Of a DNA stretch of 33,655 nucleotides, positions 9,850 through 32,930 are shown piece by piece. The stretch comes from Paenibacillaceae bacterium ZCTH02-B3 (GTDB lineage: Bacteria > Bacillota > Bacilli > Paenibacillales > Paenibacillaceae), in NCBI GenBank assembly GCA_002159065.1, contig LZRV01000037.1, positions 1 through 33,655 on the forward strand, given 5' to 3'. A program made the position numbers and the translations under genes. Positions within the stretch are counted from its first letter, which is position 1, and each line of letters opens with the position of its first letter. The notes beneath the pieces are model-generated. The model searched no databases, had not been told where the DNA came from, and was given only the letters and a program-made list of their open reading frames with translations.

Positions 9850-9969
9850 GCTTGTTAGAGCACCGGCGTTCAAGCATATGTCATCTTCATTGTGTTTTTT
9901 TTCACAAGCGGGATGACCGTCGGAGAGAGAAAAAATCACGATCACAGAGGACAACGGAGATTGGATGGG

Positions 9970-13689: not shown

Positions 13690-13753
13690 CCGGATGTCCG
13701 GGTGCGGCAGGGAGCGGTCATGGCCGATGATCCTTGGTCCGGAATGGAGGAGA

Positions 13754-14155: not shown

Positions 14156-14158
14156 GAT
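14130..14158 (+). promoter_or_regulatory. Sigma-A promoter for O-acetylhomoserine sulfhydrylase
   Basis: TTGACG (14130-14135), a 17-bp spacer and TAAGAT (14153-14158), partly inside gtrA. The -10 is identical to that of the sbp promoter at 29484-29489. Confidence 0.6.
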
Positions 14159-14174
14159 GAGGATAATCCCAATT

Positions 14175-15536
<1,362 letters not shown>

Positions 15537-15563
15537 AAAAGCGGACCATCGCCGCGGAACGGC

Positions 15564-15605
15564 GGGAGAACCGCGGGGCAAACGCCCCGGGTTCTCCCTT
15601 ATTTT
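15564..15605 (+). terminator. Rho-independent terminator after the sulfhydrylase gene
   Basis: Left arm 15564-15579 (GGGAGAACC then CGGGGC) and right arm 15584-15598 form a stem of about 15 pairs with a 4-nt loop and one bulged G, followed by TTATTTTGTTT. It isolates the upstream gene from the pel-type cluster. Confidence 0.9.
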
Positions 15606-15782
15606 GTTTCATGGCATTTTGTCGACGAAGTGCGAATGTTCCGGTGCGTCCGCGCATGTCCGCCGTTCGCCGTCCGCCGGGCCTTCTTTCCGTTGTCCTT
15701 CCCTTTGGAATGTTTTTCCCTCAGCCTGAATATGAAATGAACAAGGTTGTCATCTTCAAAACGGAGGAAAGAGGAACCCAAA

Positions 15783-17999
15783 ATGAGAGTTTTGGTTACC
15801 GGCGGATACGGTTTTGTCGGTTCTTTCGTGGCCGAAAGGTTTTACCGGGAAGGATGGGACGTTTCCATCCTGGATAACCTGTCGACGGGCCGCAAGGAAT
15901 ACGCGGATTTCAAACACCGAAGTTACGTCATGTCCGTGGAAGATCCGGCCTGCGAAGAGGTGTTCCGCAGCGGCGGCTTCGACGTGGTGGTGCATCTGGC
16001 CGCGCAGACGGACGTTTCCTCGTCTCTCGAAAATCCGCAGGGGGACGCCCGGTCCAACGTGCTGGGGCTCGTGAACATCCTGAACCTGTCGGCGAAGTAC
16101 GGCGTGAAAAAAGTGATCTTCGCCTCCTCCGCGGCCGTGTACGGTCCGCAGGAAGAGGTGCCGATCCGGGAAAGCGCGCCGTGCGCCCCGATATCGCCCT
16201 ATGGGATCAGCAAATGGACCGGTGAACAGTACCTCTTGAAGTGGCGGGACATGTTCGGTTTGGAAACGCTTTGCTTCCGCATCGCCAACATTTACGGCCC
16301 GAGACAGGGGCACGGAGGCGAAGGGGGCGTCGTCTCCGCGTTCATCCTGAGAGTCCTGGCCGGCGAAGAACTCATCGTGTACGGCGACGGCGAGCAGACC
16401 CGCGATTTCATCTACGTGGGAGACGTGGCGGATGCCGTCTACCGGGCCGCCTTGTCCGATCTGTCCGGCGTGTACAACCTCTCCACGGGAACGGAAACCT
16501 CCGTGAACGACCTGGCGGATGCCATCGCCAATCTGCACGGCGTACCGGTTCCGAAGGTCCACCGGGACCCCCGTTTCGGGGAGATCCGGCGTTCGGCCCT
16601 CGATTCCTCGCGGCTGCGCCGGGATCTGGACTGGGCCCCGCGGTATTCCCTTGAGGAAGGGTTGGCCAAAACGTACGAGTGGTTCCGGGACCAGATGCGC
16701 AAATCGTCCCGAGCCGCCGGGAAATCCAAAGGCGTTGGAGTTGGAGTGCGGATTCGGCGCTTTTTCGGCAGGGTCGCCCCGTTTCTGGAACACGCCGTAG
16801 TGTTCGCGCTTGTCGCCTGGCTCATCCTTGCCCAGCCGTCATGGGCGGCCGCCTTTCCCGATCTGAAGCTGCTGTACATCGTGCTGATGGGCGTCCTGCT
16901 CGGCTGGGCGCATGCCGCCGTCGCCGTCGCGCTGTCCTGGGGACTTCATGTGTATGACCTGCTGGTTTCGGGACGGGATCTGCTCGTGCTCGTTCACGAT
17001 CCCAACTTTTTCTTCCAGCTGGCGGCTTATCTGATCGTCGGTCTTGTAACCGGGTACGCCATCGAACGGAAAAAACGCGCGCTGAAACAGCAGGAAGAGC
17101 AGGCCGCGGCGCTCGAGGAACGGTACCGCCTGCTGCGGGAGGTATACGACGAAACCCGGGTCCTGAAAGACGAATTGTACGAACAGATCCTGAACCACCG
17201 GGAAAGCTTCGGCAAGATCCGCGCGGCGACACGGGCGCTGGAAAGCCTGGAGCCGGAAGTCATCCTCACTTCCCTGGCCGGCGCCGTCGAAAACGTCCTG
17301 CGCACCGAAAGTGTAGCCGTTTACATAACGGGCCGGTTCGGCGAACCGCTGCGCCTTGCGGCCCGGTCCGCCGGCTGTGACGCTCCTCCCGTTTTGCAGG
17401 CCGAGACGTCCCCCTGGCTTCGCCGGTTGCTGGAAGAACGCCTGGTGTTTGTCAATCGCGAGCTGCACCCCGAAGCCCCCCTGATGGCCGCTCCGGTGGA
17501 GGACGGCCGGACGGTTCGGGCGGTGATCGCCGTGTTCGATCTGCCGTTTGCGCGCATGTCCCTTCATTACCGGCTTCTGTTGGCCCAGACCGCGGATCTG
17601 GCTTCTTCCGCCTTGCGCCGCGCCGTCCTCCATGAGGAGGCGACAAGCGAACTTCGGCGCGTCGCGGGCACCGATGTGCTGAAGCCGCAGGCGTTCGCGG
17701 CCCTTCTCGAGCATCGGCGGAATCTGCGCGAGAAGCACGGCATGGGGTACGCGCTGCTGAAGGCGGAGCTTCCCGAAGAAGCCGCGGCCGGAACGGGAAG
17801 CGCGGCATGGGTCCGCACGGCGCAGAAAATCGCCCCGCACCTGCGCCAGACCGACTTCTTGGGGTGCGATTGGCAGGGACGGCTCCTGGTGCTGCTCTCC
17901 GACCTGGACGCCCGGGAAACCGCCGACCTGATCGCCCGCATCGAGGCCTTGGGTGTCCGGCTCTCACCCGCGGAAGAGGGGACGCGCCATGCCGGATGA
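15783..17999 (+). CDS. pelD: GalE-like epimerase fused to PelD-type c-di-GMP receptor
   Basis: A 738-residue bifunctional protein. Residues 1-310 are an extended SDR nucleotide-sugar epimerase with TGGYGFVG at 6-13 and the catalytic Y140-x3-K144, probably making a UDP-hexosamine precursor. Residues 337-426 hold about four membrane helices, then a basic, Gln/Glu-rich coiled coil (427-480) and a GAF-like domain (about 485-625). Last is a degenerate GGDEF domain. There the inhibitory-site motif RxxD is kept (R688-Q-T-D691), and five residues later the GGDEF position reads WQGRL, so it should bind c-di-GMP but not make it, as in PelD. The ATG at 15783 follows GGAGGAAAGAGG. It heads a cluster with pelE, pelA-like, pelF and pelG. 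The region 15611-15782 shows no convincing promoter. Confidence 0.88.
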   Translation: MRVLVTGGYGFVGSFVAERFYREGWDVSILDNLSTGRKEYADFKHRSYVMSVEDPACEEVFRSGGFDVVVHLAAQTDVSSSLENPQGDARSNVLGLVNILNLSAKYGVKKVIFASSAAVYGPQEEVPIRESAPCAPISPYGISKWTGEQYLLKWRDMFGLETLCFRIANIYGPRQGHGGEGGVVSAFILRVLAGEELIVYGDGEQTRDFIYVGDVADAVYRAALSDLSGVYNLSTGTETSVNDLADAIANLHGVPVPKVHRDPRFGEIRRSALDSSRLRRDLDWAPRYSLEEGLAKTYEWFRDQMRKSSRAAGKSKGVGVGVRIRRFFGRVAPFLEHAVVFALVAWLILAQPSWAAAFPDLKLLYIVLMGVLLGWAHAAVAVALSWGLHVYDLLVSGRDLLVLVHDPNFFFQLAAYLIVGLVTGYAIERKKRALKQQEEQAAALEERYRLLREVYDETRVLKDELYEQILNHRESFGKIRAATRALESLEPEVILTSLAGAVENVLRTESVAVYITGRFGEPLRLAARSAGCDAPPVLQAETSPWLRRLLEERLVFVNRELHPEAPLMAAPVEDGRTVRAVIAVFDLPFARMSLHYRLLLAQTADLASSALRRAVLHEEATSELRRVAGTDVLKPQAFAALLEHRRNLREKHGMGYALLKAELPEEAAAGTGSAAWVRTAQKIAPHLRQTDFLGCDWQGRLLVLLSDLDARETADLIARIEALGVRLSPAEEGTRHAG

Positions 18000-18972
18000 T
18001 CCTCTCTTGTGGCTGAGCGGTTATGGGGGATATGTCGCAATCTCAGCCGTGTTGCTCGCCTGGTTTTACCGGCGGGACTTAAAAGCTTGGGCGGTCCGGT
18101 TCGTGTTTGCCGCGGCTTTGCCGGTCGCCGGTTTGCTGATCGCCGGGCCCCGTCCGGCGGGCAAAAACGCGGCGCCCGGGAAAGCCGTTTCGCGGGGGAG
18201 GGCAGAATCGCCGGGTGGACTTGCCCTTCCCGAGGACGCTTTTTTGACCGCCGATCTCAAGGTGCCGGATGACGAGACCCGCTTCCATCTGGACCGGGCG
18301 AAGAACGCCCGCACGAGGGACGCGGTGCCCCTGGAGGAGGCGCTTCTGGCCGCCGACGTGCCGATCCGGCGCCGCATGCTGCTGTCCCTCCTCGGCCGCG
18401 AAACGCCCATCGATCCGGATCTGCTCGCCCTTGCGGCGCGCAACGACGATACGGAAACGTCGCACTACGCCGTCAGCGTTGTTCTGGAGCGCAGGCGCAA
18501 GGGGACCCTGGCGGTGCAGGAATGGTCCGCCCGGTATGAGGCGGACCCGTCCGATCCCGGCGCGATGCGGGCCTACGCCGCCGCGCTCAAGGAAATCCTC
18601 GCCGGCGGGTTTCTGGATCCCGTTTCCCGGCGGGAATTTCGGCTGAAGCTGGCGGAAGTGCTTCAGCGGTTGGTTGACACGGACCCGGATGCCTGTCGCT
18701 ACTATCCGGATCTGATCGAAACCGAGCTTGCGCTGCGCCGCCACGAACGCGCCTCGGAGCTGGCGGAGGAATTCGTCCGGCGCTTCCCGGAGAAGGAAGA
18801 GGCCTACCTGGCTTTGCTCCAGACGGGGTACGCGCGGCGGTCGATGGAAGCCATCCGTGACGCCCTGAACCGGCTGATCGGGGCCCCGGTCCGCCTGTCC
18901 GGCGACGCGCTGGCGGCGGTCCGTTTCTGGCTGGGGGGTGCGGACGATCCGGTCGTTACGTCTCGGCAGTGA
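17989..18972 (+). CDS. pelE: PelE-like membrane/helical-repeat protein
   Basis: Probable counterpart of PelE, the inner-membrane scaffold of Pel synthase complexes that pairs with PelD. The 327 residues begin with two membrane helices (about residues 11-29 and 38-55) and a charged, disordered linker. A long all-helical region of TPR/HEAT character follows, with segments such as RRRMLLSLLGRE, LALAARNDDTETSHYAVSVV and ACRYYPDLIETELALRRHERASELAEEFVRRFPEKEEAYLAL (read in pieces). The ATG at 17989 overlaps the pelD end by 11 nt and has AGAGGGG upstream. The 3' end overlaps pelA by 35 nt. Sequence identity to characterised PelE is not obvious by eye, so the call rests on architecture and position. 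Confidence 0.75.
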   Translation: MPDDPLLWLSGYGGYVAISAVLLAWFYRRDLKAWAVRFVFAAALPVAGLLIAGPRPAGKNAAPGKAVSRGRAESPGGLALPEDAFLTADLKVPDDETRFHLDRAKNARTRDAVPLEEALLAADVPIRRRMLLSLLGRETPIDPDLLALAARNDDTETSHYAVSVVLERRRKGTLAVQEWSARYEADPSDPGAMRAYAAALKEILAGGFLDPVSRREFRLKLAEVLQRLVDTDPDACRYYPDLIETELALRRHERASELAEEFVRRFPEKEEAYLALLQTGYARRSMEAIRDALNRLIGAPVRLSGDALAAVRFWLGGADDPVVTSRQ

Positions 18973-20764
18973 AGTGTACATCATCCTGTTCGCCGTCCTG
19001 CTCCTTGGTTTCTCCTTTCGCATTGCCACTTCCGGAGCGTTGTCCCCATTCCGGCATGACGAGGAACTCCTCCGGCAGTTTTCCGCCTGGAAAGCCGACG
19101 GTGCACATGTTCCGGCACCCGAAGGTCCGCCCATCTGCGCGGTCTACCGGTCCGACGAAAAACCGAGCCTAAACGTGCAGAAGCATCTGGAACGCGTGCT
19201 CGCCTACATGAAAAAACCGGTCCGGTCCATCGACGTCTTGCGGGAACCGCTGGACCCGGCGGGGTGCGAGGCGGTGATCGCCAGCGTACGGCAGCTTGAA
19301 CAGCTCGGCGATCCCATCCGGCTGGCGGCTTATGCGGAAAACGGCGGATCCATCATGATTACGCTGCCGCCGGAAATCAATGACGCGTTTTACCAATGGT
19401 ACAGGAAATTGGGAATCATCAACTTCGGCCGGTATGACACCAAACCGGGCGTGGAACTGACCGGAAACGTCCTGATCGGCGAGACAGGCCTCCGCATCGC
19501 GGGAGAAACGTTCGCGAACTGGTCCCTGGAGGTGGAGCTGGATCCGGAGAGCCGGCTGCTCGTCCGGTCGGCGGACGGCAATCCGCTTCTGTGGGAGCGC
19601 GCCTACGGACGGGGCAAAGTGATGGTGTTCAACGGCACGATGCTGGAAAGCAAGTCCAGCCGCGGACTCCTGGCGGGCGCCGTCAGCATGCTCGTGCCCG
19701 ATTTCCTCTATCCGGTGTTCGGCAGCAAGGTCGTCTTTCTCGACGATTTTCCGGCGCCGCTGAGACCCGGCACCACGGAGGACATCTACAGATTGTACAA
19801 GCGTGACATTCCGGCGTTCATCCGGGAGATCTGGTGGCCGGACATGCTGCGGATCGCCCGGCAGCACGATCTGGTGTACACCGCGGTGCTGATTCAGAGT
19901 TACAACAACCGCGTGGAACCGCCGTTCGAGGAGCCCGTGGACGAAGATGTGCGGGGACTGGCCACATTCGGAAGGGAAGTGCTGCGCGGCGGCGGGGAAA
20001 TCGGCCTGCACGGCTACAATCACCAGTCGCTGGAAAACCGCCGCAGCGTGTACGACTACAATGTCTGGCCCGGCATCGAACCGATGCGGGAGTCCATCGG
20101 GGAGGCGCTTCGCCATCTGCAGCGCGCTTTCCCGGATTACCGGCCGTTCACGTACGTGCCCCCGTCCAACGTGCTGAGTCCCGACGGACGGGAAGCGCTG
20201 AAACAGGCCTGGCCGGAGCTGGCCGTCATCGCTTCGCTTTACGTCGAAGACGCCCAAGACATCGCTTACGTGCAGGAATTCGAAGTGGCTCCGGACGGCA
20301 TCGTGGAGATGCCCCGCGTCACCACCGGCTATGGGGAGAACGATTATTTCCGGTGGGTGGAGGCGAACGTGATCACGCTGCACGGCTTCTTTTCCCACTT
20401 CATCCATCCGGACGACGTGCTTGATCCGGAAAGAAACCTCGGGGAATCGTGGGACCGGCTCCGGGAGCTGTTTGCGGAAGACATGGCCCGTGTCCGGCGC
20501 ACCCATCCCTGGCTTAAGCCTGTGGGCGCGGCGGAAGCGGCGGCGGACATGGTCCGGACGCTGACCGGACGCCTCGTCCTGAAACGGGAGGGCCCGGTCC
20601 TGCGGGCGGAGTGGGAACCGGAACCCGCGGGAACGCTGGATTTCATCCTGCGGACCGGACGGGCCCCCAAACGGACGGAAGGCGCGACGGCCGTCCGGAT
20701 CGACGAAGGGGTCTATCTGATCCAGACCGGGTCCGCCCGGTTTGCCATCGAATGGGAGGAGTAG
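18938..20764 (+). CDS. PelA-like DUF2194 protein with deacetylase-type domain
   Basis: A 608-residue membrane-anchored extracytoplasmic protein at the pelA position. An N-terminal signal anchor (IILFAVLLLGFSF, about residues 15-27) is followed by an alpha/beta region to about 250. A polysaccharide-deacetylase-like domain comes next, with the metal-binding pair D269-D270 in VFLDDFPAP, H358-GYN-H362, the TYVPPSN segment and HFIHPDD at 487-493. It probably de-N-acetylates the polymer during export, as PelA does. It lacks an obvious glycoside hydrolase domain and is shorter than P. aeruginosa PelA (about 950). The GTG at 18938 overlaps pelE. A C-terminal beta-rich tail may bind glycan. Confidence 0.8.
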   Translation: MRTIRSLRLGSEVYIILFAVLLLGFSFRIATSGALSPFRHDEELLRQFSAWKADGAHVPAPEGPPICAVYRSDEKPSLNVQKHLERVLAYMKKPVRSIDVLREPLDPAGCEAVIASVRQLEQLGDPIRLAAYAENGGSIMITLPPEINDAFYQWYRKLGIINFGRYDTKPGVELTGNVLIGETGLRIAGETFANWSLEVELDPESRLLVRSADGNPLLWERAYGRGKVMVFNGTMLESKSSRGLLAGAVSMLVPDFLYPVFGSKVVFLDDFPAPLRPGTTEDIYRLYKRDIPAFIREIWWPDMLRIARQHDLVYTAVLIQSYNNRVEPPFEEPVDEDVRGLATFGREVLRGGGEIGLHGYNHQSLENRRSVYDYNVWPGIEPMRESIGEALRHLQRAFPDYRPFTYVPPSNVLSPDGREALKQAWPELAVIASLYVEDAQDIAYVQEFEVAPDGIVEMPRVTTGYGENDYFRWVEANVITLHGFFSHFIHPDDVLDPERNLGESWDRLRELFAEDMARVRRTHPWLKPVGAAEAAADMVRTLTGRLVLKREGPVLRAEWEPEPAGTLDFILRTGRAPKRTEGATAVRIDEGVYLIQTGSARFAIEWEE

Positions 20765-20769
20765 AACGG

Positions 20770-22254
20770 ATGCGCATCTGCCTGATCGCCGAAGGATCCT
20801 ATCCCTACGTAACCGGGGGAGTGTCCAACTGGATCCAAACCCTTGTCACCAGCATGCCGGAACACGAATTTGTGCTTCATACCATCGGCGCCCACGAATC
20901 CCAGCGGGGGCAGTTCCGGTACGAACTTCCGGCCAATCTGGCCGCCGTGCACGAGACGTTTCTGGCCCCCCATTCCTTCTCCCGGAAGCGGTGGGGACGC
21001 CTGATCCGCCTGACGGAACGGGAGAAGGCGGCCCTGGCCGGCCTCCTCGGATGCGGCGGCACCCGGCCGGAACAGGCGGAGGAAGGCGTCCCGACGCCCG
21101 TCGATGAGGTGGATTGGGAGGCGCTCTTCGGCCTGTTCCGTTCGCGGCGCCTGCGCCACCCCGCCGATTTTCTGGCCAGCCGGGATTTCCTCGATCTCCT
21201 GGTCGTTTCGGGCGCCGAAAGATACGGCCACATTCCGCTCACCGAACTGTTCTGGTCCGTCCGGTCCATGCTGCTTCCCCTCATCCTGACGCTTCGGCAG
21301 CACGTCCCGAAGGCCGATCTGTACCACGCCGTCACCACGGGCTACGCGGGCGTTTTCGGGGGACTGGCCAGCCATATGTACGGCAGGCCCCTCGTGGTGA
21401 CCGAGCACGGGATCTATTCGCGGGAACGGGAAGAAGAAATCCTCAAGGCGGACTGGGTGCGGGAACATCTGAAGGAACTGTGGATCGAGCACTTTTACCG
21501 CCTTTCGGCCTGCGCCTACCGGTACGCCGACCGGGTGCTGACGCTGTTTGAGCGGAACCGCGAGATCGAAATCGAGCTCGGCTGTCCGCCGGAAAAAACC
21601 GCCATCGTCCCGAACGGCATCGACGTCGATGCGTACGACAACCTTCCCTCCGCGCCGCCGGACGGCCGGTTCCGCATCGGCGCCATCGTGCGGGTCGTCC
21701 CGATCAAGGACATCAAGACGATGATTCTCAGCTTCGCGCTGATCAAACGGGAATTGCCGGAGGCGGAATTGTACATTATGGGGCCGGTGGATGAAGGCGG
21801 CGAATATGAGGCGGAATGCCGCCGGCTTGTCGAATCCCTGGGCCTTGCGGATGTGTATTTCACCGGCCATGTGAACGTCCGCGAGTGGCTGGGCCGTATG
21901 GATCTCATGTTGCTGACCAGCGTCAGCGAAGGGCAGCCGCTCGCCGTGCTGGAAGGAATGGCGGCCGGACTGCCGTGGGTGGTGACGGACGTCGGCGATT
22001 GCCGCGGGTTGGTGGAGGGAAGCGGCGACGGGTTGGGCCCGGCCGGCATCGTCGTGCCGGTCATGCACGTGGAGCGGATTGCCGCCGCGGCCGTGCGGCT
22101 TGCCCGGGACCCCCGGCTGCGGGCGGAAATGGGCCGCAGCGGCCGGGAGAGGGTGCGGCGGCTGTATACGCGGGAACGCTTCATCGACGAATATCGCCGG
22201 TTGTATGCCGAGCTGGGGGAGGCGGAAGCATGGCGGGCATCGGCTTCGAACTGA
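20770..22254 (+). CDS. pelF: PelF glycosyltransferase (GT4)
   Basis: Cytosolic GT-B glycosyltransferase that polymerises the Pel chain from UDP-sugars, likely UDP-GalNAc/GlcNAc. The 494 residues start MRICLIAEGSYPYVTGGVSNWI, the family's Gly-rich N-terminal loop. They continue with LYHAVTTGYAGVFGGLAS, LVVTEHGIYSRERE and IVPNGIDVDAYDN. The donor-binding Ex7E motif is at E387-E395 (EGQPLAVLE), followed by GMAAGLPWVVTDVGDCR. Length and motifs fit PelF well. The ATG at 20770 lies 5 nt after the previous stop, with GGAGG in the upstream coding end, and the gene overlaps pelG by 25 nt. It sits between the PelA-like gene and pelG exactly as in Pel operons. Confidence 0.93.
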   Translation: MRICLIAEGSYPYVTGGVSNWIQTLVTSMPEHEFVLHTIGAHESQRGQFRYELPANLAAVHETFLAPHSFSRKRWGRLIRLTEREKAALAGLLGCGGTRPEQAEEGVPTPVDEVDWEALFGLFRSRRLRHPADFLASRDFLDLLVVSGAERYGHIPLTELFWSVRSMLLPLILTLRQHVPKADLYHAVTTGYAGVFGGLASHMYGRPLVVTEHGIYSREREEEILKADWVREHLKELWIEHFYRLSACAYRYADRVLTLFERNREIEIELGCPPEKTAIVPNGIDVDAYDNLPSAPPDGRFRIGAIVRVVPIKDIKTMILSFALIKRELPEAELYIMGPVDEGGEYEAECRRLVESLGLADVYFTGHVNVREWLGRMDLMLLTSVSEGQPLAVLEGMAAGLPWVVTDVGDCRGLVEGSGDGLGPAGIVVPVMHVERIAAAAVRLARDPRLRAEMGRSGRERVRRLYTRERFIDEYRRLYAELGEAEAWRASASN

Positions 22255-25200
22255 AAAGACTGTACCGGAAGGAAGGGGTTCTCGCCCAGCTCCGGGCGCA
22301 CGCCTATGCCATCTCGGTGGCCGTCGGGCCGATGCTGCTGGCTATGGCCCAGATCCTGGCCCTGCTCGCCCTCATGACGGTGAACGGCGCGTCTCTCATG
22401 GAGCGGGAGCTGTTTCTGGCCACGGCGATATACGCGTTCATTTTCTCGCTGCTGTTGACCGGCGGACTGACCATGGTGCTTTCCCGCTTTTTGGCGGACC
22501 GGCTGTTTCACCGGGACTACGTCCATCTGTCGTCCTCCTGGCACGGCGCCGCCGCGCTGGGCCTGGCCGCCGCGTTCGTCGCCGCATGGCTGTTCCTCTG
22601 GCGGGCGGAGACCACCCTCTGGCACAAGGCGGCCGCGTATCTGCTTTTCGCGGAGCTCACCGTTCTCTGGGTGCAAAACGTGCATTTGACCGTGCTCAAA
22701 GCGTACCGGAGAATCGCCCTGCACCAGTTGGCCGGCGCGCTCACGTCGCTGGCCGCCGCCTGGCCGCTTTTTGTCCTGGCTCCGGAAACCGGAGCGGCCG
22801 GCGCGATCGCCGCGATGGACGCCGGTATGTTCGTCGTGTTGCTCTTCACCGCGCGGTATTGCGGGAAAGCTTTTCCCCCGGCGGACAGCAGCCGGTACGG
22901 GGCTTTTCTCGCCTATTTCCGGAGGACGCCTTCGCTGTTTTGGACGGGGATGTTCCTTTACGGAGGCGCGTTTGTCCATCTGTTCGTGTATTGGTCGGGG
23001 CCGGAAGCGAGGGAGATCGCCGGCGCGTTCCGCGTGTCGCCGTTCTTCGACCTGCCTTCGTTTTACGCCTTCCTGACGGTGGTGCCCACCCTTGTGACGT
23101 TTGTCGTATCGGTGGAGACGCACTTTTACGAAAAATTCCGCGACTACTACCGGAACGTGCTGGGCGGCGGCACGCCCCGCGACATCGCGAAGGCGAAGGA
23201 AGACATGCAGAGGGCGCTCGTGCGGGAGATCCGGTTTGCGATGGAAGTGCAGCTCATGTTCACGGTGCTCGCGCTGGCGCTGGGCGTGAAGCTCCTGCCG
23301 CTCACCGGTTTCACCGCCCGGCAGCTGGATCTGTTCATCACGCTGGCGCTGGGCTACTACCTGTACATCATCGCGTTTGTGCTGGTGATGATCCTGCTCT
23401 ATTTCGACGACCGGAGGGGCGCGCTGACGATCGCCGCGGGGTTTGCCGCCGCCAACGCGGGGCTGACGCTGTGGTCGATGGATGGGGCGCTTGACGGGCT
23501 GGGCCTGATCATCTCCGCTTTCCTGGCGCTGATGGCGGCTCTCGTCCGCCTGATTCACCTGCTCCGGCATCTCGATTACCGCACCTACTGCTCCCAGCCG
23601 GTCGGGCCGGGTCCGCAGCGGAAAGGGCGGCGGAAGGGAGGCCCGGCGTCGGGCATGTTCATGGTCCTTGCCGCTTGCGCGCTGCTTACGGCCGGCTGTT
23701 CGTCCCAATCCGGCCCGTCCGCCCAGGCGACGGAGCCGCCGCCCGGCATCATGACGGCGGGCCTGAAGGAAGACAAACGGCTGTATGAACGGGACGACGA
23801 CCAGTCGGTGCGCACGCTGTACGTGACGGTGCTGCCCGACCGCCGCGGCGGCCCGGATCCGCTGACCTGGTATAAGCTGAACCGGGTCCGGGATCGCATG
23901 GAAGAAGGCGCGCTGGACATCATCCTGCAGGAAGGCGAGCCGGGCGGCGGCGGGCCGAAGCCGGGGATGTTCGGGTTCGCCGCGACCGAAGCCAACGGGC
24001 GGATTGAACTCAGGGGCGGCTCATCCCGATACGAACCCCAGCGCAATTACAGGATCAAGCTGAACAGGCAGGCCGGGCTATGGAACGACCAGCGGGTGAT
24101 CAACCTGAACAAGCACATTTTCGACCCCGTCCGCATCCGCAACAAGCTCAGCTTCGACCTGTTCGAACAAATGCCGGACATCGCCAGCCTGCGCACGCAG
24201 TTTGTGCACCTCTTTGTCCGGGACCTGTCGGAGGGCGCAAAGGTCGCGCCGTTTGAGGACTACGGCCTGTACACGCAGGTGGAGCAGCCGAACCGCATGT
24301 TTCTGCGCAACCATCTGCTGGATCCGAACGGGTATCTGTACAAGGCGGCCGATTTCGAATTTTTGCGGTATCCGGACGAGCTCAAGGACGAAAACGACCC
24401 GGACTACGACCGGGCGCTTTTCGAGACGCGCCTGGAAATCCGGGGGAGGGAAGAGCACGGGCGGCTGCTCGCCATGCTGGAGGATGTGAACAACCCGTCG
24501 ATCCCGATCGCGGAAGTCATCGAGCGGCATTTCGATCTGGACAACTACCTGACCTGGATGGCGGCCAACCTGCTCATGGACAACATGGACACGACCGCGC
24601 AAAATTTTTTGCTATATTCGCCGCTGAACCAGACCAAATGGTATTTCCTGCCCTGGGATTACGACGCCGCCTGGGAATGGCCCCGCGCCTACGAATATTC
24701 GGCCCCGTACGAGGGCGGACTGAGCAATTACTGGGGGAGCGTGCTGCACAACCGGTTCTTCCGCAGCACGGAGCATGTGCGGCTCTTGCAGGAAAAAATG
24801 GAGGAGCTGTACGCCTCGGCGATCAACGAAACCGCGGTGGCGGAACGCGTGGCCGCTTACCGGCGCACGGTGGAACCGTTTTTGCGGCGGGAGCCGGACG
24901 TGTATTATCTGCCGGTGGAGGCGGATCGCCTCGAGGAGGCTTTCGAGCTCCTTATGGGCGTGCCGTCGCGCGCCATGGAACGTTTCAAGGCTGATCTGGA
25001 GGTCCCCAAGCCTTTCTTTCTCGGCGATCCGGAGCCGCTCGGAGAAGGGACGTACCAATTTTTCTGGGACCCGTCCTATGATTTGCAAGGGGACGATCTG
25101 GTCTACGAATGGTCCCTCGCCAGGGACCCGCAATTCACCGACTCCGTGCGCCGCGTCCAGGGAATCCGGGAGACTTCGCTCATTGTGGACGGGCTGTCTC

Positions 25201-25328
25201 CCGGCGTGTATTTCTGGAAGGTCGTGGTGACCGATGCGGCCGGGCATTCGCAGATTCCGTTCGACCGTTTCCAGGATGCGGACGGGCGCCTCCATTACGG
25301 GGTTCGGGAATTTTTTGCGCACGAGTGA
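22230..25328 (+). CDS. pelG: PelG exporter in one frame with a CotH-kinase lipoprotein (1032 aa)
   Basis: Residues 1 to about 455 are PelG, the MATE/Wzx-like membrane protein thought to move the growing chain across the membrane. It opens MAGIGFELKRLYRKEG, has about 12 hydrophobic segments, and carries the typical VPTLVTFVVSVETHFYEKFRDYY region (read in parts) and the closing HLDYRTYCSQP. No stop follows. A basic linker (QRKGRRKGG) leads straight into MFMVLAACALLTAGC, a lipoprotein-type hydrophobic segment with Cys490, and then a CotH kinase domain. PelG elsewhere ends near residue 455-480. Either one polypeptide is made, with the linker acting as the cytoplasmic n-region of a thirteenth segment, or CotH starts internally at 23655. 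The frame is continuous on direct reading. Confidence 0.88.
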   Translation: MAGIGFELKRLYRKEGVLAQLRAHAYAISVAVGPMLLAMAQILALLALMTVNGASLMERELFLATAIYAFIFSLLLTGGLTMVLSRFLADRLFHRDYVHLSSSWHGAAALGLAAAFVAAWLFLWRAETTLWHKAAAYLLFAELTVLWVQNVHLTVLKAYRRIALHQLAGALTSLAAAWPLFVLAPETGAAGAIAAMDAGMFVVLLFTARYCGKAFPPADSSRYGAFLAYFRRTPSLFWTGMFLYGGAFVHLFVYWSGPEAREIAGAFRVSPFFDLPSFYAFLTVVPTLVTFVVSVETHFYEKFRDYYRNVLGGGTPRDIAKAKEDMQRALVREIRFAMEVQLMFTVLALALGVKLLPLTGFTARQLDLFITLALGYYLYIIAFVLVMILLYFDDRRGALTIAAGFAAANAGLTLWSMDGALDGLGLIISAFLALMAALVRLIHLLRHLDYRTYCSQPVGPGPQRKGRRKGGPASGMFMVLAACALLTAGCSSQSGPSAQATEPPPGIMTAGLKEDKRLYERDDDQSVRTLYVTVLPDRRGGPDPLTWYKLNRVRDRMEEGALDIILQEGEPGGGGPKPGMFGFAATEANGRIELRGGSSRYEPQRNYRIKLNRQAGLWNDQRVINLNKHIFDPVRIRNKLSFDLFEQMPDIASLRTQFVHLFVRDLSEGAKVAPFEDYGLYTQVEQPNRMFLRNHLLDPNGYLYKAADFEFLRYPDELKDENDPDYDRALFETRLEIRGREEHGRLLAMLEDVNNPSIPIAEVIERHFDLDNYLTWMAANLLMDNMDTTAQNFLLYSPLNQTKWYFLPWDYDAAWEWPRAYEYSAPYEGGLSNYWGSVLHNRFFRSTEHVRLLQEKMEELYASAINETAVAERVAAYRRTVEPFLRREPDVYYLPVEADRLEEAFELLMGVPSRAMERFKADLEVPKPFFLGDPEPLGEGTYQFFWDPSYDLQGDDLVYEWSLARDPQFTDSVRRVQGIRETSLIVDGLSPGVYFWKVVVTDAAGHSQIPFDRFQDADGRLHYGVREFFAHE
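23655..25328 (+). CDS. CotH-family kinase lipoprotein (internal start of the pelG frame)
   Basis: Alternative or domain-level entry for the 3' half of the preceding frame. CotH proteins are atypical kinases that phosphorylate spore-coat or surface proteins; polymer-associated homologues exist. The ATG at 23655 gives 557 residues with a lipobox LTAGC (Cys15). Catalytic elements, numbered in the fused frame, are K610 in NYRIK, D787 and N792 in the MDTTAQNF segment, and D810/D812 in PWDYDAAW. A C-terminal fibronectin-like beta region (about residues 935-1032) follows. GGAAGGGAGG ends 13 nt before the ATG, a loose ribosome site. The signal would lack basic residues, since those lie upstream in the PelG tail, and this argues for read-through. 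Confidence 0.7.
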   Translation: MFMVLAACALLTAGCSSQSGPSAQATEPPPGIMTAGLKEDKRLYERDDDQSVRTLYVTVLPDRRGGPDPLTWYKLNRVRDRMEEGALDIILQEGEPGGGGPKPGMFGFAATEANGRIELRGGSSRYEPQRNYRIKLNRQAGLWNDQRVINLNKHIFDPVRIRNKLSFDLFEQMPDIASLRTQFVHLFVRDLSEGAKVAPFEDYGLYTQVEQPNRMFLRNHLLDPNGYLYKAADFEFLRYPDELKDENDPDYDRALFETRLEIRGREEHGRLLAMLEDVNNPSIPIAEVIERHFDLDNYLTWMAANLLMDNMDTTAQNFLLYSPLNQTKWYFLPWDYDAAWEWPRAYEYSAPYEGGLSNYWGSVLHNRFFRSTEHVRLLQEKMEELYASAINETAVAERVAAYRRTVEPFLRREPDVYYLPVEADRLEEAFELLMGVPSRAMERFKADLEVPKPFFLGDPEPLGEGTYQFFWDPSYDLQGDDLVYEWSLARDPQFTDSVRRVQGIRETSLIVDGLSPGVYFWKVVVTDAAGHSQIPFDRFQDADGRLHYGVREFFAHE

Positions 25329-25345: not shown

Positions 25346-26053
25346 ATGCAATTTATGGGCCGGAAATTGCGCCACGAGTTGAAATATTACCTTCATCCGC
25401 ACACCTACGCGGACCTCCGCCGCCGGGTCGCCGTCCTGTTTCCGCGGGATCCCCATTCCGTCTGCGCCGACGGGTATTCGATCCGCAGCCTCTATTTCGA
25501 CGGGCCGCACGACCACGCCCTGTCCGACAAGAAGAGCGGCATCTTCAGCCGTGAAAAATTCCGCATCCGCATCTACAACGGCTGCGACCGCTTCATCCGG
25601 CTGGAGCGGAAAAGCCGCTACGGCGAATGGGTGAGCAAGGAATCGGCGCCGCTCACGCGGGAGGAATACGACCGGCTCCTGGCCGGGGACGGATTGTTCC
25701 TGGAAACGGGACCGAAACTGTATCGCGATTTCTATGACGCCATCGCCCGCAGAGGGTACAAGCCCTCCGTCATCGTCGATTACGTGCGGGAAGCCTATTT
25801 CTGCGAGCCGGGCGGGGCCCGCATCACCTTCGACAAGCGCCTGTCCGCCGCGGTCAACACGACGGACCTGTTCGATCCCGGCATGGTCACCGTGGAAACC
25901 CTGGAGCATTCGCTGACGATCATGGAAATCAAATACGGCGCGTATCTGCCGGAATTCGCGCGGCGGCTCGTGCAGGCGGACATGCGGCGCGCGGCCATCT
26001 CCAAATACGCCATCTGCAGGGACTATTTCTTGCGACACCATACCTTTGCATGA
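25346..26053 (+). CDS. VTC-domain (polyphosphate polymerase-like) protein
   Basis: Triphosphate-tunnel protein related to the catalytic domain of the yeast vacuolar transporter chaperone, which makes polyphosphate from ATP. The 235 residues keep the basic and acidic tunnel residues: RHELKYYL, YSIRSLYFD, EKFRIRIYN, RLERKSRYG, the ITFDKRLSA strand, IMEIKYGAYLP and AISKYAIC. The ATG at 25346 lies 17 nt after the cotH stop. VTC proteins of this size commonly sit next to CotH and DUF4956 genes in Firmicutes and actinobacteria, as here. Whether it makes polyphosphate or handles another triphosphate for the polymer system is not known from sequence. Confidence 0.85.
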   Translation: MQFMGRKLRHELKYYLHPHTYADLRRRVAVLFPRDPHSVCADGYSIRSLYFDGPHDHALSDKKSGIFSREKFRIRIYNGCDRFIRLERKSRYGEWVSKESAPLTREEYDRLLAGDGLFLETGPKLYRDFYDAIARRGYKPSVIVDYVREAYFCEPGGARITFDKRLSAAVNTTDLFDPGMVTVETLEHSLTIMEIKYGAYLPEFARRLVQADMRRAAISKYAICRDYFLRHHTFA

Positions 26054-26069
26054 AAGGGTGCATGAAAAG

Positions 26070-26771
26070 GTGCCTTCCGGTCATGGGGAAGTCTTTACGT
26101 TCCAGGATCTGCTTGATCTGTTCAAGCAGGGCGAGCTCGCCCTCGATTCCTTCCGCAGCGTGTCCTACTTCGACATGGCGCTGGTGCTGCTGTGCTCGCT
26201 ATGCATCGGCTTGTTCATCCATTGGGTGTACCGATTCACCTTTCGAGGCGTGGTGTACAGTTACAACTACAACGTGTCCTACGTGCTGATGACGATCATC
26301 ACCGCGCTTGTCATCATGACGATCAGCTCCAACCTTGTGCTTTCCCTCGGCATGGTCGGCGCGCTCAGCATCGTCCGTTTCCGCACCGCGGTCAAGGACC
26401 CGCTGGACATCGTCTACATGTTCTGGGCCATCGCCGCCGGCATCACCGCCGGGGCCAAGCTGTACCCGGTCGCGCTGATCGGCTCCGCCTTCATCGGCCT
26501 CGTCCTTTTCTGGGTATCCCGCAAAAAAATCCGCCACCAGCCGTTCCTGCTCATCGTCCGCTATACGGAAGAAGCGGCGGACGCCGTCCGGGAGCGCCTC
26601 GCGAAGCTCCCCTACACGCTGAAGGGAAAAACGGTGCGAAAAGATTACATCGAACTGACGGCGGAACTGAAGCTTCGGGACGACAACACGGCGTTTCTGG
26701 GCGACCTGGCGGCCATCGACGGGGTGGTGGACGCGTCGCTCGTCAATTATCGCGGGGATTACGCGCAGTAG
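26070..26771 (+). CDS. DUF4956 membrane protein
   Basis: Membrane protein of unknown function that regularly accompanies VTC and CotH genes. It has three to four hydrophobic segments (LVLLCSLCIGLFIHWVY, then SYVLMTIITALVIMTISS, then YPVALIGSAFIGLVLFWVS). The family signature is LSLGMVGALSIVRFRTAVKDPLD, read in two parts, followed by FWAIAAGITAGA. A soluble C-terminal domain of about 80 residues has a ferredoxin-like pattern. The start is uncertain: GTG 26070 (GAAAGGG 11 nt upstream) is chosen, but TTG 26046 and GTG 26058 are in frame, the first overlapping the VTC gene. It is the last gene of the pel-type cluster. Confidence 0.85.
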   Translation: MPSGHGEVFTFQDLLDLFKQGELALDSFRSVSYFDMALVLLCSLCIGLFIHWVYRFTFRGVVYSYNYNVSYVLMTIITALVIMTISSNLVLSLGMVGALSIVRFRTAVKDPLDIVYMFWAIAAGITAGAKLYPVALIGSAFIGLVLFWVSRKKIRHQPFLLIVRYTEEAADAVRERLAKLPYTLKGKTVRKDYIELTAELKLRDDNTAFLGDLAAIDGVVDASLVNYRGDYAQ

Positions 26772-26828: not shown

Positions 26829-28412
26829 GTGCGCGTGTCGAACGTGCTGGAATTTACGGAAAACCACCGGTTTGTCGCATACCGCGATTTTGCCCTGAGC
26901 GCGCTGGACCGCAAAGTTCTCGCCCTGCTGTACCAGCCGCTGGCCGGATCGCTGGCCGTGTCTTTCTATCTGCTGCTGTACCACCGGCTTGGCGAGGACG
27001 AGATCGGCTATACGCCGCCGGATCAGCAGCGCGGGCTGTTTCTCGGCCTCGGCCTGGATCCGGGCCTGGACGGCCGGCGGCGGCTGATCGAAGCGTCGTC
27101 CCGGCTGGAAGCCGTGGGATTGCTCAGGGTCTACCGGCGTTACGACCCGGTGACGGAAGAGACGCTGTACGAATACGAGCTTCGGCCCCCGCTGCCGCCC
27201 CACCGTTTTTTTGCCCACCCGTATCTCACGCTGCTCCTGCGGGACCGTATTGGTAGATACGCGCATCTCGAGCTGCACAAGGCTCTGGAACCCGATCCGC
27301 CCGCCGATCTGGACCGGTTTTTGAGCCGGGAGGACGTGTCCGTGCCGCCCGCGGAAATGTTCAGGCTGGGCAAGGGCGCGGGCGAACGCCCGGAACCGGA
27401 CGCCGCCGATCCCTTCGCGGAAGCGGCCGCCGCGCGGGAGGACGGACCGGAAGTGCCGGAGCGGATCCGCCACGCCGACATCCTGTTCCGTTTTCCGCGC
27501 GGATCGGCGAACCGAAAATGGGTGGAGCGGCTCCGCCACATGCCGGAAGCGATGGCCAGAATCAATTACCTCGCCTACAAATACGAGCTCAACGCGCCGG
27601 AAATCTGCCGCCTGCTGGACGAGGACGGCGCTTTCCGGGAGGACGGGCGGCCGGATTGGGACCTGCTCGACCGCCGCGCCCGCGAGTTGTACCGGCAGGA
27701 CCGCAAACGGGAGAAGGAGCGCGCCATCCGGCTCGCGCGGCTGAGCGCGGCGGGGGGAGACCCTGCGGAGGAGACGGACAGGCTTCCGCCCCTGGCCGAA
27801 ACCGGGGATCCCGAAGCCGGTGCCCCGGCAGGCAAGGAATCCGGCGCGGAGCCGGACGGGGCGGAATTCATCCTCGAGGTGCCGAAGCGTTTGCCCGCCG
27901 CCATGCCGGTTCAGGCGTACAACGACCTGTTGCGCCACAAGCCGTGGACGCGGGTGCTGAGGCTCTTTTTCCCGGGAGCGGTGCCGGACCCGTTCCTGCG
28001 CGTTTTCGAGAAAATCGACGCGGCCTACCGCCTGCCGGAGCCGGTGATCAACGTGCTGATCCATTACGTCCTGAGCATGGACGAAACGCAGCGGCTGTCC
28101 GAGCCGTTCATCGACGCCATTGCCGCCAACATGCTGGCCAAGGGAATCGCCACCTATGAAGAGGCGGTCGCCTATGTCCGCGGGCAGGAGAAACTGCGCG
28201 AGACATTGGAGCGAAGGGCCGGCGGCGGGACCGTCCGCGGGGAGCGGGCGGGCACCCAGGGCAAGGGCGCGGGAGGCGCCCGGGGAAGGTCCGCGGGCCG
28301 CAAACCCGACATGCCGGTGGTGGAGGATGACGGACCGGAACGGGAAATGACGCCCGAGGAACTGGCGAATCTGTACGAACTGGCGCGCAAGCTCAAGGAA
28401 ACGAATCCGTAA
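26829..28412 (+). CDS. dnaB: Replication initiation and membrane attachment protein DnaB
   Basis: Firmicute helicase co-loader (not the helicase), which works with DnaD and DnaI to place the replicative helicase on DNA at oriC and at restart sites. The 527 residues open with a DnaB/DnaD N-terminal winged-helix domain (LEFTENHRFVAYRDFALS, then VLALLYQPLAGSLAVSFYLLL). An acidic linker and a DnaD-like C-terminal domain with PVINVLIHYVLSMDE and FIDAIAANMLAKGI follow. The end is Gly/Arg-rich and disordered. The GTG at 26829 has GGGAGAAGAG upstream at a somewhat long distance. It precedes dnaI by 28 nt. In B. subtilis the same pair forms one operon, which supports the call. Confidence 0.92.
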   Translation: MRVSNVLEFTENHRFVAYRDFALSALDRKVLALLYQPLAGSLAVSFYLLLYHRLGEDEIGYTPPDQQRGLFLGLGLDPGLDGRRRLIEASSRLEAVGLLRVYRRYDPVTEETLYEYELRPPLPPHRFFAHPYLTLLLRDRIGRYAHLELHKALEPDPPADLDRFLSREDVSVPPAEMFRLGKGAGERPEPDAADPFAEAAAAREDGPEVPERIRHADILFRFPRGSANRKWVERLRHMPEAMARINYLAYKYELNAPEICRLLDEDGAFREDGRPDWDLLDRRARELYRQDRKREKERAIRLARLSAAGGDPAEETDRLPPLAETGDPEAGAPAGKESGAEPDGAEFILEVPKRLPAAMPVQAYNDLLRHKPWTRVLRLFFPGAVPDPFLRVFEKIDAAYRLPEPVINVLIHYVLSMDETQRLSEPFIDAIAANMLAKGIATYEEAVAYVRGQEKLRETLERRAGGGTVRGERAGTQGKGAGGARGRSAGRKPDMPVVEDDGPEREMTPEELANLYELARKLKETNP

Positions 28413-28440
28413 GGGACGGACAAGCGGGGAGTGAAGCGGT

Positions 28441-29436
28441 GTGCAATCGATGGGCGAACTGCTTCGCCGCTGGGCCGGAGCGGAACTGTCCCGGGATGCC
28501 GGCAGGCTGGCGGAACGGGTGCTGGCCGATCCGCTGGTGGACGAGCTCCGCCGGCGCTACCCCGGCCTGGACGACGAAACGCTGCGCGGCAACGTGAACC
28601 GGCTGTACCAATACATACGGGATGCCCGCAACTGCCGCGAGTGCCCCGGTCTTGAGGCATGCCCCAACGATCTTCCGGGCCACTATACCCGCATCGCCTG
28701 CACGCCGCAGGGAGGCGGGTGGCAACTGTTCGACCTGAAGACGCCTTGCGCCAAATGGGAGGCCTGCGAGCGGCAGCGGCGCATCCGCAGCCGCATTACG
28801 AGTTTCTACGCCAATCTGGAGCAGTTCGGCGAATTCGACCCGGTGGAAATGATCGAACGCGACCGGAAGCGCCGGCCGGCCGTGCATCAGGTGCTGGCCT
28901 ATATCGACCGGACGGTGAAGGACGGGCTGCAAAAGAAAGGCCTGTACCTGATGGGCGGGTTCGGCACGGGGAAAACCCATCTGGCCGTCTATCTGTTGCG
29001 CGAGCTGAGCAAAAACGGTTTTTCCGGCGTCATCGTTTACATGCCGGAATTCGTCGAGGACGCCAAGGCGCTGATGCTGGAACCGCAGAAACTGAAGGAG
29101 ACCCTGGATCTGATGAAGGAAACCGACATTCTGGTGTTCGACGACATCGGCGCGGAAAATCTGACGCCCTGGGTGCGGGACCACGTGCTGGGTGCCATTC
29201 TGAACGCCCGCATGAACCGCAAGCCGACGTTTTACACTTCCAATCACGACCTGGACGCGCTGGAACGTCATTTCAGCTTCACCCACAAGGAAGGGGAGGA
29301 GCTCCACAAGGGACGCCGGCTCATGGATCGCATCCGGCCCTACGTCGACGTGATTCGCGTGAGCGGCAGGAACCAGCGGGTGGCGGGTGCGTCCGCGGGA
29401 GCGGACCGTGAACCGCCGTCCGGTGCGGGCATATGA
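28441..29436 (+). CDS. dnaI: Primosomal helicase loader DnaI
   Basis: AAA+ ATPase that loads the DnaC-type replicative helicase in Firmicutes. The 331 residues have an N-terminal helicase-binding domain with a zinc-type Cys cluster (NCRECPGLEACPND), then PCAKWEACERQ. In the ATPase domain Walker A GGFGTGKT is at 172-179, Walker B VFDDIG starts at 232, a sensor-1-like FYTSNHDL is present, and an Arg-rich RRLMDRIRPYV segment closes it. The last 20 or so residues are variable. The GTG at 28441 has GGGGAG about 8 nt upstream. It is coupled to dnaB. The 168 bp after it hold the promoter and operator of the sulfate operon. Confidence 0.94.
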   Translation: MQSMGELLRRWAGAELSRDAGRLAERVLADPLVDELRRRYPGLDDETLRGNVNRLYQYIRDARNCRECPGLEACPNDLPGHYTRIACTPQGGGWQLFDLKTPCAKWEACERQRRIRSRITSFYANLEQFGEFDPVEMIERDRKRRPAVHQVLAYIDRTVKDGLQKKGLYLMGGFGTGKTHLAVYLLRELSKNGFSGVIVYMPEFVEDAKALMLEPQKLKETLDLMKETDILVFDDIGAENLTPWVRDHVLGAILNARMNRKPTFYTSNHDLDALERHFSFTHKEGEELHKGRRLMDRIRPYVDVIRVSGRNQRVAGASAGADREPPSGAGI

Positions 29437-29460
29437 TGGGCCGGGGCGGAATTTTTTCGC

Positions 29461-29489
29461 TTGACACCGGAGGGGCGGTTGGTTAAGAT
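29461..29489 (+). promoter_or_regulatory. Strong sigma-A promoter of the sulfate operon
   Basis: Consensus TTGACA (29461-29466), a 17-bp spacer and TAAGAT (29484-29489). Start near 29496, inside the CymR-like element, and a leader of about 109 nt to sbp. Confidence 0.75.
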
Positions 29490-29492
29490 GGA

Positions 29493-29518
29493 AATACCAA
29501 CTAAACAGGTAGGAATAA
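29493..29518. promoter_or_regulatory. CymR-like operator candidate at sbp
   Basis: A 26-bp element running from AATACC through GGTAGGAATAA, with TACC and GGTA as inverted arms and the GGAAT end typical of CymR sites as I recall the consensus. It overlaps the transcription start, where a repressor would block RNA polymerase. It resembles 14175-14200. Confidence 0.4.
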
Positions 29519-29604
29519 TAAAACTTTGACGACCGGACCACCGGAGCAAAGGCAAATCCGCCTGGCAAGATTTCATTCCAAATTCCGAGGAGTGTTATCG
29601 GATC

Positions 29605-30669: not shown

Positions 30670-30838
30670 CGCCGGAACTTGCGCGCCGAAGCGCGGGATG
30701 CGCGCATGCGGACGGAACTTCCGGATTTGCGCTCCGGGACGGTAATGCGGGATTTGCAAACACGGACTTGAATTGTGCGGTTCACACTGGATCGGAAACG
30801 CGGGGGTTACCCGAAGGGACGGAGGAAGGAACGCGCGC

Positions 30839-31684: not shown

Positions 31685-31702
31685 GGAGGGGGGAACGAAC
31701 GC

Positions 31703-32587: not shown

Positions 32588-32616
32588 CGGGACGGCTTGA
32601 AACGGGAGGGGAGAGC

Positions 32617-32823: not shown

Positions 32824-32847
32824 AGCCGGGACCTTCCGTGAAACGGA

Positions 32848-32894: not shown

Positions 32895-32930
32895 TTTGTC
32901 CGCATCCGCTCACGGCGGATACGATCGCAT

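What the first reader, a model, noticed from the sequence alone, without database searches (positions are those of the whole stretch)
22230..25328. PelG exporter and CotH kinase share one uninterrupted reading frame
Seen: no stop codon between PelG (ending near residue 455) and a lipoprotein-like segment MFMVLAACALLTAGC at 476-490. The basic residues a signal peptide needs lie in the PelG tail (QRKGRRKGG), not after the internal ATG. Inferred: the kinase may be made as the C-terminus of the exporter and possibly released as a lipoprotein by signal peptidase II at Cys490. That would place a kinase directly at the export pore.
Basis: partly seen in the sequence, partly recalled or inferred. Interest (0 to 1): 0.75.

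Follow-up and report, generated by a model that had tools for sequence, protein, structure and literature searches.

The report
Pel exporter with built-in lipoprotein kinase
In this bacterium and many relatives, one unbroken gene encodes both the predicted exporter of the biofilm sugar Pel and a CotH-type kinase domain, joined by a conserved lipoprotein-like signal at which the cell would likely cut the protein in two, so that one gene likely delivers exporter and surface kinase together.

Summary
PelG (22230-23600) and a CotH kinase domain share one open frame to 25328. I examined 177 proteins with the same fusion: 120 Bacilli-type, 55 of a Clostridia-type set and 2 more. In the wider PelG trees the fused state needs 8 changes. 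At the junction a basic linker, a hydrophobic stretch and a lipobox-like Cys are kept: Cys in 120 of 120, 55 of 55 and 1 of 2, within a poorly conserved linker. Internal starts are not kept: 7 of 33 fused loci have a start plus Shine-Dalgarno site (8.4 expected by synonymous reshuffling), 8 have no start codon, against 42 of 43 separate lipobox cotH genes. Best reading: one polyprotein whose internal lipoprotein signal is predicted to be processed by Lgt and LspA, freeing CotH as a surface lipoprotein one-for-one with PelG. Processing is untested. This genome's motif (TAGC) is a weak variant, and an ATG with a purine-rich site at 23655 leaves room for independent initiation here.

The parts
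22230..23600 (+). PelG domain (residues 1-457): predicted 12-helix Pel exporter, N- and C-ends predicted cytoplasmic
   Evidence: PF16933 4.8e-121; alignment-averaged hydropathy with positive-inside alternation; ATG with Shine-Dalgarno energy -11.5 kcal/mol
23601..23654 (+). Basic linker (residues 458-475, with QRKGRRKGG), predicted n-region of an internal signal
   Evidence: in 120 homologues the linker from QP to Cys is 27-42 residues and its part before the hydrophobic stretch carries net charge +3 to +9
23632..23641 (+). Purine-rich Shine-Dalgarno-like stretch GGAAGGGAGG, 13 nt before ATG 23655; possible internal start (rival reading)
   Evidence: sequence; -10.4 kcal/mol; such a site in all 200 synonymous reshuffles
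23655..23696 (+). Hydrophobic stretch (residues 476-489), predicted 13th membrane segment / signal h-region
   Evidence: best 12-residue hydropathy near the Cys at least 1.8 in all 120 homologues
23688..23699 (+). Lipobox-like TAGC with Cys490 (codon 23697-23699), predicted Lgt/LspA site
   Evidence: Cys at this column in 120 of 120 Bacilli-type fusions; window motif passes the PROSITE-like pattern but not the strict -3 rule
23700..25328 (+). CotH kinase domain (Pfam 592-896) and a C-terminal part with a weak FN3/PKD-like match, predicted extracellular; D787 and D810 match catalytic Asp of CotH
   Evidence: PF08757 3e-61; 5jd9 over residues 576-891, E 1.6e-15, and a weak match of 942-1006 to 6nz0, E 0.00098; D787, D810 invariant in 51 of 51
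15747..17999 (+). PelD-like: epimerase domain plus GAF
   Evidence: relative present in 21 of 21 fused named loci
17953..18972 (+). PelE-like TPR protein
   Evidence: 21 of 21
18938..20764 (+). DUF2194 / deacetylase-like, PelA-DA position
   Evidence: 21 of 21
20611..22254 (+). PelF-like glycosyltransferase (true start probably further in)
   Evidence: DUF3492 plus GT4; 21 of 21
25346..26053 (+). VTC-domain (polyphosphate polymerase-like) accessory gene
   Evidence: PF09359 1.1e-31; 21 of 21 fused named loci
26046..26771 (+). DUF4956 accessory gene
   Evidence: PF16316 7.9e-12; 20 of 21 fused named loci, the other (L042) ending at base 9942, shortly behind its VTC gene

Best explanation
One open reading frame encodes a PelG-family exporter domain followed in frame by an internal lipoprotein-type signal and a CotH-family kinase domain, and the single product is predicted to be lipidated at Cys490 and cut there by signal peptidase II, which would release CotH as a surface lipoprotein one-for-one with PelG. 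Shown: the frame, the fusion in many relatives, the near-invariant Cys, the absence of conserved internal start sites, and Lgt and LspA genes in this genome. Inferred: PelG spans the membrane 12 times and ends inside; the basic tail acts as the n-region; the hydrophobic stretch threads out through Sec like an ordinary signal peptide; Lgt lipidates Cys490 and LspA cuts before it; CotH then stays anchored by lipid on the outer face near the Pel machine and phosphorylates an unknown partner so as to raise Pel output. The last step leans on a Streptococcus intermedius mutant of the separate cotH homologue, which makes less Pel (PMC12345266, passages seen).
For: Fusion in 33 of 98 de-duplicated loci and in 177 proteins examined, 172 of them 1020 aa or longer. 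32 Bacilli fusions form one clade with SH-aLRT 100; the wider trees need 8 changes, at least 6 forced by starred branches, and a single Clostridia-type clade is rejected, p-AU 9e-10. Cys490 column entropy is 0 while 43 of the 48 columns at 459-486 and 492-511 exceed 2.5 bits. Cys kept in 120/120 and 55/55; strict lipobox 104/120 and 39/55, PROSITE-like 118/120 and 42/55. Internal start plus SD in 7 of 33 fused loci against 8.4 expected by synonymous reshuffling, no start codon in 8 of 33; controls are 33/33 pelG starts, 65/65 separate cotH starts and 42/43 lipobox cotH in the same search window. 80 of 120 have no Met in the usable part of the linker. Positive-inside alternation puts the tail inside and CotH outside. 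LspA and Lgt in the genome. D787 and D810 conserved.
Against: No processing data. The window's motif has Thr at -3, and its nearest homologues have Ala and Pro there. P0249 is fused without the Cys and P0245 has only LEGC. The window has an ATG with an SD-like site, and 7 of 33 fused loci have such a site. No start codon in 8 of 33 is itself what reshuffling gives (7.4), so it shows absence of upkeep, not selection against starts. No structure model was obtained. The lipobox passages seen in PMC9360617, PMC8048626 and PMC5817068 treat it as part of an ordinary signal peptide, PMC8048626 saying N-terminal, so an internal one is unproven as a substrate. Separate relatives near several fused rows also have a lipobox, so it may be partly inherited.
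Confidence: 0.68

Rival explanations
1. The fusion is real but stays uncut: the hydrophobic stretch is a 13th transmembrane helix that holds the CotH domain on the outside of the exporter.
For: Topology would work without cleavage. Some separate CotH relatives start with a plain hydrophobic anchor without Cys: 23 of 65 lack a lipobox by the pattern used. P0249 is fused without the Cys.
Against: A mere anchor needs no cysteine, yet Cys is kept in 120 of 120 and 55 of 55 with mostly lipobox-like residues before it.
Confidence: 0.17
2. Two overlapping in-frame products: the long fusion plus a CotH lipoprotein started internally at ATG 23655 or 23661, so that the fused frame is largely a by-product.
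For: GGAAGGGAGG lies 13 nt before ATG 23655, -10.4 kcal/mol; the 88% homologue P0002 keeps the Met.
Against: A signal starting there has no basic residue and only 14 residues before Cys. The 79% homologue P0003 lacks the Met. Start plus SD is no commoner than in synonymous reshuffles across 33 fused loci, and 8 have no start codon. The window's own site appears in all 200 reshuffles, so it is a consequence of the amino acids encoded.
Confidence: 0.11
3. Artefact: a missed stop or frameshift in the assembly joins two genes.
For: The genome is a draft in 187 contigs; separate genes are common in relatives.
Against: The same frame occurs in other records at 88%, 79% and 45-55% identity and in 15 of the 28 sampled family genomes that hold the locus.
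Confidence: 0.02
4. The fusion is cut at the junction by another protease, such as signal peptidase I, and lipidation is incidental.
For: P0249 has no Cys and shows an AXA-like RAEA after its hydrophobic stretch; LtaS is a multi-spanning protein cut by signal peptidase I (PMC10865820, passages).
Against: The conserved feature in the other 176 is a Cys; 160 of the 175 aligned ones pass the PROSITE-like lipobox pattern.
Confidence: 0.02

Closest known systems
Gram-positive Pel operon with cotH, polyphosphate polymerase and DUF4956 accessory genes (PMC7112168, passages seen)
   Same: Same gene set and order here: epimerase-PelD, PelE, PelA-DA, PelF, PelG, CotH, VTC, DUF4956.
   Different: The passages describe cotH as one of the accessory genes behind pelDEADAFG; no fusion is mentioned in them ('fusion' 0 occurrences in the main text). 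The supplementary figures were not seen.
SIR_1594, the separate CotH-like protein of the Streptococcus intermedius pel locus (PMC12345266, passages incl. part of the abstract)
   Same: CotH domain plus C-terminal FN3 domain by the authors' prediction, secreted, in a pel locus; its deletion lowered the Pel signal and, in artificial sputum medium, aggregation.
   Different: Separate gene; here it is the C-terminal part of PelG behind a lipobox.
LtaS / eLtaS (PMC10865820, passages incl. part of the abstract)
   Same: A multi-spanning membrane protein whose extracellular enzyme domain is cut free by a signal peptidase.
   Different: LtaS is cut by signal peptidase I (SpsB) between Ala217 and Ser218 and most of the product reaches wall and supernatant; here the site is of the lipoprotein type and the product would stay lipid-anchored.
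Dual Sec/Tat polytopic proteins such as Sco2149 and Sco3746 (PMC5449189, passages)
   Same: An internal signal sequence at the end of a multi-spanning protein exports a C-terminal domain.
   Different: Twin-arginine signal; the signal peptidase I sites in the passages seen were put in by the authors; 'lipoprotein' has 0 occurrences in the main text.
Spore coat kinase CotH (5jd9; D228 and D251 of B. subtilis CotH, PMC7821199 passages)
   Same: Homologous kinase domain with both catalytic Asp positions.
   Different: A spore coat protein; here a domain behind an exporter and a lipobox.

Membership tests
PelG exporter (PF16933) | Full-length match to the family model above its cut-off | tested here: met
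   405.3 bits against a cut-off of 29, positions 1-452 of 452
PelG exporter (PF16933) | Pel transport activity | not testable with these tools
   No experiment; inferred from the operon
CotH kinase (PF08757) | Match to the family model and to a solved CotH | tested here: met
   208.1 bits against 23.8; 5jd9 E 1.6e-15
CotH kinase (PF08757) | Catalytic Asp residues (B. subtilis D228, D251) | tested here: met
   D787 and D810 align with chain positions D224 and D247 of 5jd9, spacing 23 as between D228 and D251; invariant in 51 of 51. The mapping to B. subtilis is by spacing, an inference
CotH kinase (PF08757) | Kinase activity | not testable with these tools
   No experiment
Bacterial lipoprotein (signal peptidase II substrate) | Basic n-region and hydrophobic stretch before the lipobox | tested here: met
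   Only when read as part of the fusion; not met from the internal ATG
Bacterial lipoprotein (signal peptidase II substrate) | Strict lipobox [LVI][ASTVI][GAS]C (as given in PMC5817068, passage) | tested here: not met
   Window TAGC fails at -3; met in 104 of 120 and 39 of 55 proteins of the two sets; the looser PROSITE-like pattern (recalled) is met by the window
Bacterial lipoprotein (signal peptidase II substrate) | Signal at the N-terminus of the precursor | tested here: not met
   The signal lies at residue 476-490 of 1032; hence 'works like a lipoprotein precursor', not filed as an ordinary member
Bacterial lipoprotein (signal peptidase II substrate) | Lgt and LspA in the host | tested here: met
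   PF01790 2.3e-73, PF01252 3.6e-43
Bacterial lipoprotein (signal peptidase II substrate) | Lipidation and cleavage at Cys | not testable with these tools
   Needs labelling or mass spectrometry
Gram-positive Pel operon, CotH/PPP/DUF4956 type | pelDEAFG followed by cotH, polyphosphate polymerase and DUF4956 | tested here: met

The most novel reading that the evidence does not exclude
A bacterial polyprotein that evolved repeatedly: a 12-helix polysaccharide exporter ends in an internal lipoprotein signal, so that Lgt and signal peptidase II, known for N-terminal signals, split a multi-spanning membrane protein into an exporter and a lipid-anchored kinase. It would guarantee equal numbers and a joint birthplace, and cutting could be timed by export, much as LtaS cutting is proposed to be timed by its substrate.
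Probability: 0.5. Interest if true: 0.75.

Novelty: new variant of a known kind. Interest (0 to 1): 0.62.

Why it matters
If true, the lipoprotein pathway acts inside multi-spanning proteins, so lipoprotein predictors that look only at N-termini miss a class of surface lipoproteins. It would also tie an extracellular kinase to the Pel exporter at a fixed ratio, giving a direct handle on how Gram-positive bacteria control a widespread biofilm polymer. In the papers seen, the role of CotH in that setting is known only from one deletion phenotype. The test is simple: one tag, one Cys mutant, one lspA mutant.

Tried and rejected
Assembly artefact: rejected by other records with the same frame. Internal start conserved across relatives: rejected by counts against pelG starts, separate cotH starts and synonymous reshuffles. 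One origin for all fusions: rejected for the Clostridia-type set; the Bacilli fusions are one clade. 'Always a canonical lipobox': not so; 16 of 120 and 16 of 55 fail the strict rule, the window among them, and P0249 lacks the Cys. RNA fold at the junction (z 0.71) and promoter/terminator scan were not informative; the scan gave 2 promoter-like matches (0.6 expected) and 11 terminator-like (3.3 expected), which I did not follow up. The first genome-contig scan with the single protein found no relative. In the phylum sample 8 of 398 genomes matched at E <= 1e-60, none of them with a further fusion. NCBIfam gave no family for the fusion. Searches for print: CotH/PelG/pel operon, CotH/DUF4956/VTC, internal lipobox and related terms, PelG/Paenibacillus. 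Neither the listings nor the passages read from the 11 papers opened described the fusion or an internal lipobox; 'internal lipobox' occurs in 0 papers held. Many subscription papers are not held, most listed papers were not opened, and no paper was read whole.

Limits of the counts: one search lists 120 of 230 hits (the window itself is one), one search lists 120 of 939 (I took the 55 with both domains; one is L055 itself, five are shorter than 1020 aa), one search lists 120 of 594 (2 new fused). The sets hold near-copies. P0173 (CotH only by Pfam, 763 aa) was not examined. Of 108 loci, L097, L098 and L104 gave no CotH match and were dropped; six repeats of contigs already held (judged by equal contig length: L036, L040, L041, L060, L096, L109) and the broken L029 were dropped before the 33 versus 65 comparison. 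The tree used 15 of 32 Bacilli and 48 of 55 Clostridia-type fusions; one search used 20 fused rows and left out 20 of the 65 separate rows, and the tested group was named after the earlier tree had been seen. The separate-start control takes the best of all starts; one search repeats it in the search window used for fused loci. Two of the 7 fused loci with a site (L010, L035) have it 45 codons before the Cys, inside PelG.
Full report
What is there. The frame 22230-25328 on the + strand is open for 1032 codons. Residues 1-453 match PelG (PF16933, 4.8e-121) and 592-896 match CotH (PF08757, 3e-61). Upstream lie epimerase-PelD, a TPR PelE-like gene, DUF2194 and PelF; downstream a VTC-domain gene and DUF4956. 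This is the Gram-positive pel locus with the cotH / polyphosphate polymerase / DUF4956 accessory set described in PMC7112168 (passages), where cotH is one of the accessory genes behind the pel genes. Between the domains come a basic tail, a hydrophobic stretch and TAGC with Cys490.

The fusion is old and recurrent. In 148 genomes drawn from the family, 15 carry it unbroken, own genome included, 12 have two genes and one (G013) is split over several frames. A protein search lists 120 fusions, the window among them, the others at 45-88% identity; named ones are from Paenibacillus, Cohnella, Saccharibacillus, Psychrobacillus and Sporosarcina. A named-genome scan adds Brevibacillus, Rummeliibacillus and Solibacillus. 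One Lachnospiraceae locus, L055, is also fused. Using it as a query gave 55 fused proteins, itself included, which I call Clostridia-type, and a third query two more. On a PelG tree of 98 loci, 32 Bacilli fusions are one clade with SH-aLRT 100 and L055 stands apart, two changes in all. With 128 rows the fused state needs 8 changes, at least 6 forced by starred branches. In a 65-row tree under a mixture model it again needs 8, and holding the 14 Clostridia-type fusions together is rejected, p-AU 9e-10. These trees cannot tell gain from loss, so part of the 8 may be re-splitting.

The junction is conserved as a lipoprotein signal, not as a gene start. In 120 Bacilli-type fusions the Cys490 column is Cys in all, while 43 of the 48 columns at 459-486 and 492-511 exceed 2.5 bits of entropy. 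Position -3 is Leu in 102, -2 is Ser/Thr/Ala in 114, -1 is Ala/Gly/Ser in 120. The strict lipobox is met by 104 of 120 and 39 of 55, a PROSITE-like pattern (recalled) by 118 and 42; Cys is kept in 55 of 55 Clostridia-type fusions. Exceptions: P0249 has no Cys and P0245 has LEGC. The window and its two nearest homologues have Thr, Ala and Pro at -3, so the motif is weaker in this subclade.

Internal starts. In the 12-45 codons before the Cys, 7 of 33 fused loci have an ATG/GTG/TTG with Shine-Dalgarno energy of -4.5 kcal/mol or better; reshuffling synonymous codons gives 8.4. Eight of 33 have no start codon at all, with 7.4 expected. The same loci show a site before pelG in 33 of 33, and separate cotH genes in 65 of 65; in the matched search window 42 of 43 separate lipobox cotH genes pass. 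In 80 of 120 proteins there is no Met in the usable part of the linker. The cysteine is thus kept and the start is not. The window itself has GGAAGGGAGG 13 nt before ATG 23655 (-10.4 kcal/mol), but all 200 synonymous reshuffles also have a site, so it follows from the amino acids encoded. It could still be used.

Topology. Averaged hydropathy over 120 homologues, with two split peaks merged by eye, gives 12 segments in PelG, with basic residues alternating as expected for both ends inside. The tail at 441-476 carries 6.2 Lys/Arg on average, the stretch at 477-487 is a 13th hydrophobic segment, and CotH falls outside. That is the orientation of an ordinary prolipoprotein, with Cys490 at the outer face. 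The genome encodes LspA and Lgt.

How it most likely works. One message and one ribosome pass would make PelG and CotH. The tail of PelG would act as the n-region of an internal lipoprotein signal; Lgt would lipidate Cys490 and LspA would cut before it, leaving PelG with a spare 13th helix and CotH as a lipid-anchored extracellular protein. The CotH domain keeps D787 and D810, which align with the catalytic positions of CotH. Its target is unknown. Deleting the separate homologue SIR_1594 in Streptococcus intermedius lowered the Pel signal, and aggregation in artificial sputum medium (PMC12345266, passages), so the likely role is to promote Pel output. The closest precedent for cutting a multi-spanning protein free of its extracellular enzyme is LtaS, by signal peptidase I (PMC10865820, passages).

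What remains open. Nothing here measures translation or processing. The main doubt for this very genome is its weak -3 residue together with its usable internal ATG. For the family as a whole the main rival is an uncut 13th helix, against which stands the near-invariant cysteine.

Noticed in passing
L029 (G013, contig 149): A family genome in which the pelG-cotH gene (pieces 47-63% identical to the window's) is split over several frames; either a poor contig or a broken gene. Not mended.
   Followed up: partly
L017, L023, L024, L025 (G007, G038, G099, G115): Genomes with separate genes can carry a second cotH copy directly behind the first, 39-41% identical to the query CotH.
   Followed up: no
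P0249 (1097 aa): The only fused protein examined without the junction cysteine; after its hydrophobic stretch it has an AXA-like RAEA, as if a signal peptidase I site replaced the lipobox.
   Followed up: partly
L044, L045, L046, L050: Fused genes of Rummeliibacillus, Solibacillus and Psychrobacillus nest inside the Paenibacillaceae fusions on the PelG tree, suggesting transfer of the fused gene between families.
   Followed up: partly
window 28441-29436 and 26829-28412: Directly downstream of the pel genes lie a DnaI-like gene and a gene with a weak DnaB_2 match, i.e. primosome genes.
   Followed up: no
window 28393-31005 (-), 30782-32905 (-), 13674-15581 (-): Long antisense frames of 635-870 aa without any Pfam match, probably shadow frames of a G+C-rich genome.
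   Followed up: no
separate cotH relatives, for example L077, L083, L101: Some Pel-linked CotH proteins without a lipobox start with a plain hydrophobic anchor; 42 of 65 separate ones match the lipobox pattern used.
   Followed up: partly
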